Virus record (IMG/VR): IMGVR_UViG_3300007512_000039
Location: 1-59,808 of that record
Reading direction: 5' to 3' (one strand)
Source: a virus
DNA: 59,808 nucleotides
The translations under genes were made by a program, and so were the position numbers. Positions 54,105 through 58,965 of this stretch are shown here, piece by piece. Below the pieces are notes generated by a model, which made no database searches, had not been told where the DNA came from, and was given only the letters and a program-made list of their open reading frames with translations. Positions within the stretch are counted from its first letter, which is position 1. Each line of letters opens with the position of its first letter.

Positions 54105-54180
54105 GGTCGTGTAGCTCAGTCTGGTAGAGCAGAGGGGTCGCCCCCAGAGACGCAGGTTCAAATCCTCGCTCGTTCCACCA
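54105..54180 (+). tRNA. tRNA-like gene, degenerate, isotype unclear
   Basis: It has a normal D arm (TAGCTCAGTCTGGTAGAGC), a TTCAAAT T loop and an encoded CCA. The acceptor (GGTCGTG against CTCGTTC) and the outer pairs of the anticodon and T stems do not match well. If T33 is in GTCGCCC, the anticodon would be CGC (Ala). It may be a decayed tRNA. Confidence 0.35.
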
Positions 54181-56076: not shown

Positions 56077-56204
56077 GAGGAGATGGGCAAACGGTAAAGC
56101 CACCAGTCGGTATGGGCTGGGGACATCCCGAAACCGCCGTCGTCCGTCCGGAAGGGAGGCGGAGCACGGTGGACGGATTGGAGGTTCGACTCCTCCTCTC
56201 CTCA
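56077..56204 (+). tRNA. tRNA gene with about 50-base insertion, isotype unclear
   Basis: The acceptor GAGGAGA/TCTCCTC and the T arm GGAGG-TTCGACT-CCTCC are perfect, and the D arm is normal (GGC-AAACGGTAAA-GCC). Between D and T arms are about 80 bases. CCAG/CTGG could be an anticodon stem with a 10-base loop; TCCGTCC/GGACGGA forms a second long hairpin in the extra part. The anticodon cannot be fixed. Confidence 0.55.
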
Positions 56205-56211
56205 TTATTCT

Positions 56212-56532: not shown

Positions 56533-56604
56533 GCGTACATAGCTCAACGGTAGAGCATTTGTCTGCCAGGCAAAGGGCTGCGGGTTCGAATCCCGCTGTG
56601 CGCT
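56533..56604 (+). tRNA. tRNA-Gly(GCC), intact
   Basis: The acceptor GCGTACA/TGTGCGC pairs (one T-G). The anticodon arm TTTGT-CTGCCAG-GCAAA gives GCC. The T arm GCGGG-TTCGAAT-CCCGC is perfect. It lies five bases after the broken tRNA-Gly 5' piece and has a different sequence in all its stems. Confidence 0.9.
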
Positions 56605-56646: not shown

Positions 56647-57168
56647 ATGGAAGAACAGAGAATATGCAGGTCGTGCGGAGATACAAAGCCCGTCTCAGAG
56701 ATGATTCCCATCAAAAGACGAGGAAAGGTTTACTATAGGAGGCAGTGCCGTTCGTGTGAGAGCAAACGATGCGCTGTACACCACGCGACGCCAAAATCTA
56801 AGGCGGCTTACAAGGCCCGTTCCGACATGCTCAAGGTAGAGCGCGCTGCTGGTCTGAATGTCGAGCGTTGGATTTACGAAGATGCTCGACGTTCAGACCG
56901 AAAGCGCGATCTGGAGAACGACCTGACGAAGGCATTTATCCGAGAGCAGATCGAGAAAGGGTGTAGCTATTGTGGAGAGGAGAGTATCCGTATGACTCTT
57001 GACCGGATCGATAACAGCATCGGGCACTTACAATCAAACTGCGTGCCTGCCTGTATTCGCTGCAACTGTACCAGAAGGCACATGCCTTACGAGGCATGGC
57101 TGATTGTGGCCCCGGCCATGCGGGAGGCGCGGTTGGCAGGTCTCTTTGGGGATTGGACTGGAAGATAG
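56647..57168 (+). CDS. HNH endonuclease, 173 aa
   Basis: The C-terminal half has CSYCGEESIRMTLDRIDNSI, then LQSNCVPACIRCNCTRRHMP, an HNH/zinc layout. The N-terminus has a second Cys set (CRSCGDTKPVSEM, CRSCESKRC) that may bind DNA. It likely nicks or cuts DNA for homing. Its stop is at the edge of the 3' half of a broken tRNA-Gly. The start follows a hairpin directly. Confidence 0.85.
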   Translation: MEEQRICRSCGDTKPVSEMIPIKRRGKVYYRRQCRSCESKRCAVHHATPKSKAAYKARSDMLKVERAAGLNVERWIYEDARRSDRKRDLENDLTKAFIREQIEKGCSYCGEESIRMTLDRIDNSIGHLQSNCVPACIRCNCTRRHMPYEAWLIVAPAMREARLAGLFGDWTGR

Positions 57169-57169
57169 T

Positions 57170-57185
57170 CCCGGCTACCGCACCA
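57170..57185 (+). tRNA. 3' piece of the split tRNA-Gly(GCC)
   Basis: CCCGG pairs with CCGGG of the 5' piece and CTACCGC pairs with GCGGTAG, both perfectly; A73 and CCA follow. Distance and order are as for a single gene with an insert in its T loop. Confidence 0.72.
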
Positions 57186-57189
57186 TTTT

Positions 57190-57248
57190 GGCGTCATAGC
57201 TCAGTCCTGATAAGGCTGAGGTCGTTGGTTCAACTCCAACCGGTATCA
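57190..57248 (+). tRNA. tRNA-Ile(GAT)-like gene lacking a D arm
   Basis: It is only 59 bases. TAGCTC is followed directly by the anticodon hairpin AGTC-CTGATAA-GGCT (anticodon GAT), then GAGGTC and a perfect T arm GTTGG-TTCAACT-CCAAC. The acceptor GGCGTCA/CGGTATC pairs poorly. It is probably a deletion derivative. Confidence 0.5.
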
Positions 57249-57433: not shown

Positions 57434-57482
57434 GTTGGCCGTAGCTCAGTCCGGTAAGAGCGCCAGGTTGTGGCCCTGGAGG
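57434..57482 (+). tRNA. 5' piece of a broken tRNA-His(GTG)
   Basis: It has an acceptor half, a D arm (TAGCTCAGTCCGGTAAGAGC) and the anticodon arm CCAGG-TTGTGGC-CCTGG with anticodon GTG. It then loses similarity after GGAGGTT; no T arm follows. A possible 3' remnant is at 58207. Confidence 0.6.
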
Positions 57483-57516
57483 TTTAAGAGAAATCTCGAC
57501 AAGCACCCGTGAATAT

Positions 57517-57588
57517 GGTACCTTTGGTGTAGCGGTAGCACGCCAGATTGTGGTTCTGGAGGCTCCGGTTCAAACCCGGGATGGTACC
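57517..57588 (+). tRNA. tRNA-His(GTG), intact
   Basis: The anticodon arm CCAGA-TTGTGGT-TCTGG gives GTG. G-1 and C73 are present, as tRNA-His needs. The T arm is TCCGG-TTCAAAC-CCGGG, and the acceptor GTACCTT/ATGGTAC has one mismatch. Confidence 0.85.
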
Positions 57589-57594
57589 CTTTTC

Positions 57595-58206
57595 ATGCCC
57601 CAGAAGAAGTCTGTTCCTAAGGTCTGTGAGGTGTGCGGAGACGTATTTCTTGTGCGGCCGGTGGACGCGAGACGGCATCCCTGCCGGTTCTGTAGTCGCT
57701 CCTGTAAAGGCAAGGCCCAGCCTCCTATAAGCAGAGGATTGACCGGAGAGGATAATCCGAACTGGAAAGGGGGGCTGACCTTCAGCAAGTCTACAGGGTA
57801 CTGGAGAGTCTTACAGCCCACACATCAGCGAGCAGACCATCTGGGGTACGTCAAGCGAGCGGACTTGGTACTGGAAGAGAAACTTGGGCGGCCTTTACTT
57901 CCCAATGAGATTGCGCACCACGTCAACGAAGATCGGGCAGATGACTCCCCAGAGAACCTGGAGTGCATGGACTATGGCGAGCACCGGCTGATGCACATCC
58001 AGCAGAGGGCAGAGCGTGCTCGGCAGTTAAACCCTCCGAAGCCGAAACAACCAGATCACCCCAGCAACCGCCGCTATACGTGGCCCTCGGATTCTGAGCT
58101 CCTCGAGATGAGGAAGACGATGAGCCTTCGACAGATTGCGGCCATAGTCGGCTGCGGCCATAAGACCGTAGATAGACGTCTCTCTCGTATTTCCTCCTCG
58201 AGATAA
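57595..58206 (+). CDS. HNH endonuclease with zinc finger and HTH, 203 aa
   Basis: The N-terminus has a Cys cluster (CEVCGDVFL, CRFCSRSCKG). The HNH_3-type core reads LPNEIAHHVNEDRADDSPEN and LECMDYGEHRLMH. The C-terminus has a helix-turn-helix (SLRQIAAIVGCGHKTVDRRL). The ATG is 7 bases after tRNA-His and no ribosome site is visible. Its stop TAA is followed by TCCCG, a 3' tRNA-like end, as in the Gly unit. Confidence 0.85.
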   Translation: MPQKKSVPKVCEVCGDVFLVRPVDARRHPCRFCSRSCKGKAQPPISRGLTGEDNPNWKGGLTFSKSTGYWRVLQPTHQRADHLGYVKRADLVLEEKLGRPLLPNEIAHHVNEDRADDSPENLECMDYGEHRLMHIQQRAERARQLNPPKPKQPDHPSNRRYTWPSDSELLEMRKTMSLRQIAAIVGCGHKTVDRRLSRISSSR

Positions 58207-58222
58207 TCCCGTCGCTCACCTA
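58207..58222 (+). pseudogene. Possible 3' tRNA remnant (His unit)
   Basis: TCCCGTCGCTCACC follows the HNH stop directly and resembles a T-stem plus acceptor end. CGCTCAC-C pairs only partly with the acceptor of the broken tRNA-His, and the 5' T-stem half is missing. Tentative. Confidence 0.35.
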
Positions 58223-58230
58223 CCTTTCTC

Positions 58231-58268
58231 GGGAGAGTGGTGTAACTGGCAGCACGTGAGGCTCTTCA
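58231..58268 (+). tRNA. 5' piece of a split tRNA (Lys-CTT-like)
   Basis: It has acceptor half GGGAGAG, D arm GTG/CAC, and anticodon 5' stem TGAGG with loop CTCTTCA, then it meets tRNA-Pro one base later. Joined to the 3' piece at 58929 it gives a full 72-base tRNA with anticodon CTT. The break is in the anticodon loop. Confidence 0.65.
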
Positions 58269-58269
58269 T

Positions 58270-58343
58270 GGACGGGTAGCTCAGCAGGCCAGAGCGTCCG
58301 GCTTTGGACCGGAAGGTGTGCGGTTCGAGTCCGCCCCCGTCTT
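58270..58343 (+). tRNA. tRNA-Pro(TGG)
   Basis: The acceptor GGACGGG/CCCGTCT pairs (one G-U). The anticodon arm TCCGG-CTTTGGA-CCGGA is perfect and gives TGG. The T arm is GCGG-TTCGAGT-CCGC with an outer mismatch. Confidence 0.88.
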
Positions 58344-58368
58344 CTCAAACCATGCAGCCGTGTTATAG

Positions 58369-58386
58369 CCATACAAAAGGGTATGG
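58369..58386 (+). promoter_or_regulatory. Hairpin just before the third HNH start
   Basis: CCATAC and GTATGG pair around AAAAGG. The ATG follows after TTCG. There is no free ribosome site. The placing is like the hairpin before the first HNH gene. Confidence 0.5.
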
Positions 58387-58390
58387 TTCG

Positions 58391-58936
58391 ATGTCTGAGT
58401 CTCAAAGGAAGAGAGACGTAGTTCGCCGGCTAAGAACGGAAGGCAAGAGCTACAAGGAGATTGCCGAAGCAACAGGGCTCACCAAGTCGACTATTGCATA
58501 CCATGCAAGAAGATTGGGAATACCAGCCCAACCCCAGCGCCGTGATTACCCCTGGAATGAAATCCAGAAGATGTATGAGAGTGGGGCAACTTATCGGGAG
58601 TGCGCGCAGAAGTACGGGTTCTCCCGTACTGCATGGGACACGGCAAAACGTCGAGGGCTTATACACCCACGGGAGAAGAGGAGGCCTGTTGAACTCTACT
58701 TCTCTTGGAGGAAGAAGCTGTCGTCAACGGCAAAGAAGCGCCTGTTCGATGAGGGTATGTTGAAAAAGGAGTGCTCTATATGCGGACAAGGACCTGTATG
58801 GGCTGGGAAGCCTCTCGTTATACAGATTGATCACATCAATGGAAACCCCGCGGACAATCGTCGTGAGAATCTACGGCCGGTGTGCCCGAACTGTCATTCT
58901 CAGACCCCGACGTTTTGCGGGCGAAACATCACCTAA
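58391..58936 (+). CDS. HNH endonuclease with HTH, 181 aa
   Basis: The N-terminus is a helix-turn-helix (SYKEIAEATGLTKSTIAYHA) followed by a second one (TYRECAQKYGFSRTAWDTAK). The C-terminal HNH core reads CSICGQGPVWAGKPLVIQID, HINGNPADNRRENL and PVCPNCHSQTPTF. The ATG at 58391 is used; the longer frame from 58304 runs over tRNA-Pro. Its stop is inside the 3' half of a broken tRNA. Confidence 0.87.
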   Translation: MSESQRKRDVVRRLRTEGKSYKEIAEATGLTKSTIAYHARRLGIPAQPQRRDYPWNEIQKMYESGATYRECAQKYGFSRTAWDTAKRRGLIHPREKRRPVELYFSWRKKLSSTAKKRLFDEGMLKKECSICGQGPVWAGKPLVIQIDHINGNPADNRRENLRPVCPNCHSQTPTFCGRNIT

Positions 58937-58965
58937 GGAGACTGGTTCGAACCCGGCCTCTCCTT
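58929..58965 (+). tRNA. 3' piece of the split Lys-like tRNA
   Basis: The anticodon 3' stem CCTAA, variable GGAG, T arm ACTGG-TTCGAAC-CCGGC (outer mismatch) and acceptor CTCTCCT are present. The acceptor pairs with GGGAGAG at 58231 along all seven positions (one G-U). Confidence 0.68.

What the first reader, a model, noticed from the sequence alone, without database searches (positions are those of the whole stretch)
58231..58965. Second split tRNA: Lys(CTT)-like gene interrupted in the anticodon loop by tRNA-Pro plus HNH
Seen: GGGAGAG at 58231 and CTCTCCT at 58958 pair along seven positions; joining the pieces at the shared TCA gives a 72-base tRNA with loop CTCTTCA. The insert is an intact tRNA-Pro(TGG) and an HNH gene with its stop in the 3' stem. 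The site differs from the Gly case (anticodon loop, not T loop), and the carried tRNA is not the same isotype, so the rescue idea is not general in simple form.
Basis: partly seen in the sequence, partly recalled or inferred. Interest (0 to 1): 0.82.

Follow-up and report, generated by a model that had tools for sequence, protein, structure and literature searches.

The report
Homing nuclease bringing a replacement tRNA
In a virus of bacteria, a DNA-cutting 'selfish' gene sits inside a tRNA gene and breaks it in two, but it travels with an intact tRNA that probably does the broken one's job; the same layout recurs in the virus's own tRNA array and in at least one unrelated virus.

Summary
The split tRNA is real. 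Acceptor strands at 58231-58237 and 58958-58964 pair 7/7 (one G-U). Joined to every window position on both strands, the 5' half scores best with this 3' half. The insert breaks the anticodon loop and is nearly all one intact tRNA plus one HNH gene, with about 11 nt of linker, so there is no room for an intron and no Rfam intron match. The carried tRNA is Gln(TTG), not Pro(TGG). The broken one is anticodon-ambiguous; its D-arm fits Gln(CTG), less often Glu(CTC), and no Lys(CTT) seen. So the 'rescue' idea is not contradicted here. Two more such units lie just upstream: Gly(GCC) in Gly(GCC), and His(GTG) in His(GTG) (3' half weak). The three HNH proteins share only the core motif. In other viruses, HNH relatives also split tRNAs (5/15 free 3' halves find their 5' half; null 6/1736). 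One, L160, is a perfect His(GTG) split carrying another His(GTG). Best reading: homing-endonuclease cassettes that insert in tRNA genes with a same-isotype replacement tRNA. Insertion is well supported; the rescue function is inferred. New variant of a known kind.

The parts
58231..58265 (+). 5' half of the interrupted tRNA X3 (acceptor, D-arm, 5' anticodon strand, first four loop bases CTCT); Gln(CTG)-like, possibly Glu(CTC)
   Evidence: searches (best partner in the window is 58924 on; 7/7 acceptor match), for isotype
58270..58344 (+). intact carried tRNA Y3, Gln(TTG)
   Evidence: ARAGORN; Rfam tRNA 56.8 bits
58352..58936 (+). HNH3: helix-turn-helix plus HNH_3 endonuclease, stop codon inside X3's 3' half
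   Evidence: Pfam HNH_3 1e-5 above its cut-off, phrog_10822 6.5e-29; relatives sit in tRNA arrays
58929..58965 (+). 3' half of interrupted tRNA X3 (3' anticodon strand, variable loop, T-arm, acceptor); carries mismatches G28-A42 and A49-C65
56473..56526 (+). second unit: 5' part of interrupted tRNA-Gly(GCC) X1, broken in the T-loop
   Evidence: joined sequence folds as a full cloverleaf, z -2.2
56533..56604 (+). second unit: intact carried tRNA-Gly(GCC) Y1
56647..57168 (+). second unit: HNH1, endonuclease VII-like; stop codon in X1's T-loop
   Evidence: phrog_1035 4.9e-22; relatives in tRNA arrays of large phages
57167..57185 (+). second unit: 3' part of tRNA-Gly X1 (end of T-loop, T-stem, acceptor)
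   Evidence: rank 2 of 1561 clusters
57434..57480 (+). third unit: 5' part of tRNA-His(GTG) X2
   Evidence: Rfam partial tRNA 25.7 bits, 57441-57500
57518..57589 (+). third unit: intact carried tRNA-His(GTG) Y2
57595..58206 (+). third unit: HNH2
   Evidence: phrog_20891 2.6e-19; Pfam HNH_3 below its cut-off
58204..58221 (+). third unit: possible 3' remnant of tRNA-His X2; weak
   Evidence: join score only 105; not among the best partners of the 5' half

Best explanation
A free-standing HNH homing endonuclease gene, together with an intact tRNA gene just 5' of it, was inserted into the anticodon loop of a Gln-type tRNA gene (X3). X3 is destroyed. The carried Gln(TTG) tRNA, which by wobble can also read CAG, replaces its function, so the insertion is tolerated and the cut site is removed. 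Two HNH genes of other kinds did the same to a Gly and a His tRNA gene next to it. Shown: the insertion anatomy, its recurrence, and the anticodon match in the readable cases. Inferred: that the HNH protein cuts the uninterrupted tRNA gene, that the cassette moves as a unit by homing, and that the carried tRNA was selected as a replacement.
For: Halves fit each other best (nulls). The insert is Y + HNH with about 11 nt of linker. Three units in tandem with HNH proteins that share only the core motif have the same plan. Independent splits by HNH3 relatives: 5 of 15 free T-arm 3' halves find a 7/7 acceptor partner with a D-arm upstream of the HNH gene, null 6 of 1736, P about 1e-9. L160: a broken tRNA-His (joined it is a perfect cloverleaf with loop TTGTGGC, anticodon GTG) holds an intact tRNA-His(GTG) and an HNH gene. 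Exact anticodon match X/Y in Gly/Gly, His/His, His/His, against 19 of 627 (3%) for neighbouring tRNAs; tRNAs merely flanking an HNH gene show no such match (1/65 same anticodon, 12/65 same amino acid). Y is no more like X in sequence than any tRNA of that anticodon, so Y is not a copy of X. HNH3 relatives: 71 of 81 loci hold tRNA genes; the tRNA just 5' is Leu or Gln in 27 of 41 (P 2e-8). Precedent that a phage homing nuclease cuts inside tRNA genes: SegB, motif RAWTSGAAC (PMC13096335), which is the reverse complement of the T-loop consensus (my reading).
Against: The anticodon of X3 cannot be read, and Glu(CTC) is not excluded (the closest single 5' half is a Glu). The His unit lacks a convincing 3' half. 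Some HNH splits carry no tRNA inside (L203, L169). No empty site was found. No cleavage or expression data. The number of cases with a readable anticodon is three.
Confidence: 0.62

Rival explanations
1. The HNH insertion into the tRNA gene is real, but the carried tRNA is not a selected replacement: HNH genes sit next to tRNAs in arrays, and the isotype match reflects array order, homology or chance.
For: Many HNH relatives lie between unrelated intact tRNAs; splits without a carried tRNA exist (L203, L169); isoacceptors often neighbour each other (116 of 627 pairs same amino acid).
Against: Exact anticodon match in 3 of 3 readable cases against a 3% background; X and Y are not similar in sequence beyond isotype, so homology would not select them; flanking tRNAs show no match.
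Confidence: 0.25
2. The two halves are still used: the carried tRNA is cut out by RNase P and RNase Z and the halves are rejoined in trans or held by the acceptor stem, giving a functional split tRNA.
For: Gly X1 and L160 X still fold as full cloverleaves when joined; the carried tRNA sits almost against the 5' half.
Against: X3 has mismatches in anticodon stem and T-stem and joined X3 does not fold as a cloverleaf; no RNA_ligase or RtcB match in the two contigs of this virus (the T4 Rnl1 search had no working control; the genome is incomplete); the 3' half lies partly in HNH coding sequence.
Confidence: 0.05
3. A group I intron or other self-splicing element interrupts the tRNA.
For: Bacterial tRNA anticodon loops are classic group I intron sites, and HNH genes occur in introns (established knowledge).
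Against: No intron match in the window at gathering threshold or, around the array, at E up to 5, nor in L160, L191, L203, L223, L100, L217, L169; only about 11 nt of the insert lie outside tRNA and ORF.
Confidence: 0.02
4. The halves are unrelated tRNA debris or chance complementarity around an HNH gene.
For: The array holds other abnormal tRNAs.
Against: the anatomy repeats in independent viruses.
Confidence: 0.06

Closest known systems
SegB of phages T4/T6 (free-standing GIY-YIG homing endonuclease of the tRNA region; PMC13096335, PMC2988022)
   Same: Homing nuclease in a phage tRNA array that cuts inside tRNA genes and spreads with them.
   Different: GIY-YIG, listed as lying between tRNA-Arg and tRNA-Ile rather than inside a split tRNA; no same-isotype replacement tRNA reported in the text I could read.
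T5 HegA / F-Tfl HNH endonucleases
   Same: HNH3 is a sequence relative (28% over 91%) and HegA follows a tRNA gene.
   Different: In T5 the neighbouring tRNAs are intact; no split tRNA found there.
Mobile ORFs of fungal mitochondria carrying a replacement gene end (Allomyces atp6, Glomus atp6/atp9/cox2/nad3; PMC3630166)
   Same: A homing endonuclease breaks a gene and brings a replacement part, leaving the native part displaced downstream.
   Different: Protein genes, LAGLIDADG or GIY-YIG, only the 3' end replaced; here a whole tRNA is carried. L100/L052, with a displaced tRNA-Pro 3' end, looks closer to the fungal plan.
HNH genes in mycobacteriophage tRNA arrays (Pope 2014 as cited in PMC5966550)
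   Same: HNH endonucleases in tRNA arrays, proposed to diversify the tRNA repertoire.
   Different: The original paper is not held; split tRNAs with a carried isotype are not mentioned in the text read.

Membership tests
Free-standing HNH homing endonuclease element | encodes an HNH nuclease with intact motif | tested here: met
   HNH_3 above cut-off for HNH3; PHROG HNH families for HNH2 and HNH3, endonuclease VII family for HNH1
Free-standing HNH homing endonuclease element | not inside a self-splicing intron or intein | tested here: met
Free-standing HNH homing endonuclease element | cuts the allele that lacks the element, at or near the insertion site | not testable with these tools
   needs biochemistry
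Free-standing HNH homing endonuclease element | presence/absence polymorphism between relatives (empty site) | tested here: inconclusive
   no empty site found; only the same virus was recovered
Element with same-isotype replacement tRNA (proposed) | intact tRNA of the same isotype inside the split tRNA | tested here: met
   exact anticodon in the Gly unit, the His unit and L160; probable for the Gln unit
Group I intron in a tRNA gene | conserved catalytic core between the exons | tested here: not met
Trans-joined split tRNA (archaeal type) | both halves keep full cloverleaf pairing and a joining enzyme is available | tested here: inconclusive
   X1 keeps it, X3 does not; no RNA_ligase or RtcB match in an incomplete genome
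tRNA-Lys(CTT) as identity of X3 | D-arm and loop of a tRNA-Lys(CTT) | tested here: not met
   none of the Lys(CTT) genes seen has this D-arm; Gln and some Glu do

The most novel reading that the evidence does not exclude
A convergent class of mobile element: HNH genes of unrelated kinds, each targeting a fixed site in tRNA genes (T-loop for HNH1-like, anticodon loop for HNH3-like), have repeatedly acquired a non-homologous tRNA of the same anticodon as a built-in replacement, a cut-and-rescue strategy in phage tRNA arrays.
Probability: 0.4. Interest if true: 0.8.

Novelty: new variant of a known kind. Interest (0 to 1): 0.66.

Why it matters
It would explain why large phages keep redundant same-isotype tRNAs and HNH genes in their arrays, and would add a whole-gene form of 'break it and bring the spare', so far described for ends of mitochondrial protein genes. 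It is directly testable: each split tRNA names the nuclease, its cut site and the replacement.

Tried and rejected
Group I intron. A first join scan over relatives gave false hits because intact flanking tRNAs were recombined; masked and repeated. Apparent 3' halves in L186 and L214 turned out, on reading the sequence, to be intact tRNAs missed by ARAGORN, with the HNH stop in their D-loop. Intact tRNAs flanking HNH genes were tested for isotype match and show none. Empty-site searches for X3 and for L160 X found none. The terminase found only the same virus; the tRNA region is absent from its 94 kb contig. RNA ligase and RtcB searches were negative (one search had no positive control). Literature searches found no description of split tRNAs with a carried tRNA in phages; most subscription papers are not held.

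Full report
What is there. At 58231-58965 a tRNA gene (X3) is interrupted in its anticodon loop. The 5' piece, 58231-58265, has the acceptor strand, a D-arm and the 5' anticodon strand; the 3' piece, 58929-58965, has the 3' anticodon strand, T-arm and acceptor strand. Between them lie an intact tRNA (58270-58344) and an HNH ORF (58352-58936, stop inside the 3' piece), with 4 and 7 nt of linker. The whole array is identical in a second contig.

Is it more than chance. The X3 5' half was joined to every position of both strands of the window: the true 3' half gives the best ARAGORN score, 118.5, ahead even of 3' halves of intact tRNAs. Swapping 3' flanks between HNH loci gave 1 of 619 at or above 115.5; a larger swap gave 0 of 878.

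Which tRNAs. The carried tRNA has loop CTTTGGA, anticodon TTG, Gln. The broken tRNA keeps only CTCT of its loop. A pattern with its D-arm and CTCT but any third anticodon base found 13 contigs in IMG/VR: 9 Gln(CTG), 4 of one Glu(CTC) family, no Lys. INPHARED neighbours are Gln(CTG) and Glu(CTC). In loci fetched for other reasons the D-arm is seen only in Gln. X3 is therefore probably Gln(CTG), possibly Glu(CTC); Lys is unlikely.

The same plan next door. In the Gly unit, tRNA-Gly(GCC) is broken in its T-loop around an intact Gly(GCC) and HNH1; joined, it is a full cloverleaf. In the His unit a His(GTG) 5' part precedes an intact His(GTG) and HNH2; its 3' part is weak. The three HNH proteins share only the core motif and fall in different families, so the plan was probably reached more than once.

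Elsewhere. HNH1 relatives and HNH3 relatives live mostly in phage tRNA arrays. Among HNH3 relatives the tRNA just upstream is Leu or Gln in 27 of 41 (P 2e-8). True splits: of 15 free T-arm 3' halves after HNH genes, 5 have a 7/7 acceptor partner with D-arm upstream, against 6 of 1736 in swapped pairs: the window's X3, L160, L191, L203, L223. L160 is the strongest: the broken tRNA-His has loop TTGT|GGC, cut between positions 35 and 36, the same place where X3 stops (CTCT|), and holds an intact His(GTG) and the HNH gene. L191 has a Leu-like tRNA around HNH and Leu(TAA), with the intact tRNA after the HNH. L203 has no carried tRNA. L100/L052 (HNH1 family) shows an intact Pro(GGG), the HNH, and a displaced Pro 3' end beginning in the T-loop, the same break site as the window's Gly unit.

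Isotype rule. Where the anticodon of the broken tRNA can be read (Gly, His, L160 His) it equals that of the carried tRNA; neighbours in such arrays do so in 19 of 627, and tRNAs flanking HNH genes in 1 of 65. The carried tRNA is not a copy of the broken one: X-Y similarity equals that of unrelated tRNAs of the same anticodon. This favours selection for function over homology, but rests on three readable cases, one of which (the His unit) lacks a firm 3' half.

Mechanism. Shown: insertion inside tRNA genes, shared break sites by HNH family in a few cases, anticodon match. Inferred: the HNH cuts the intact tRNA gene, the cassette spreads by homing, and the carried tRNA makes the loss tolerable. 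SegB shows that phage homing nucleases cut inside tRNA genes, with motif RAWTSGAAC, the reverse complement of the T-loop consensus (my reading). Fungal mitochondrial elements show the 'bring the replacement part' plan for protein genes.

Against. X3 could be Glu; the His unit is half supported; some splits carry no tRNA; there is no empty site and no experiment. An intron is excluded for practical purposes. A rejoined functional split tRNA is unlikely for X3, which has stem mismatches and does not fold as a cloverleaf when joined; no RNA_ligase or RtcB match was found in the known parts of the genome.

Noticed in passing
L045 2070-2210; L061 269-378 (-); L063 1554-1660; L169 362-489: Good tRNA matches of 107-141 nt in arrays of large phages, i.e. 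tRNAs with inserts of some 30-60 nt that are not HNH genes.
   Followed up: no
window 57174-57248: tRNA-Ile(GAT)-like sequence without a normal D-arm, overlapping the 3' end of the broken tRNA-Gly.
   Followed up: no
window 54105-54176; 56085-56210: Abnormal tRNAs: one with a four-base anticodon loop, one Tyr-like with a very long variable region.
   Followed up: no
L147, L159, L178, L186, L193, L205, L214, L221: HNH genes whose C-terminus and stop codon lie in the 5' part of the next intact tRNA, as if fused to it.
   Followed up: partly
L161 1735-2620; L085 350-1116: Asp(GTC)-HNH-Asp(GTC) and Pro(TGG)-Pro(TGG)-HNH: duplicated same-anticodon tRNAs beside an HNH gene, no split.
   Followed up: partly
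L223 2944-3115: manA RNA motif (RF01745, 66 bits) next to a phage tRNA array.
   Followed up: no
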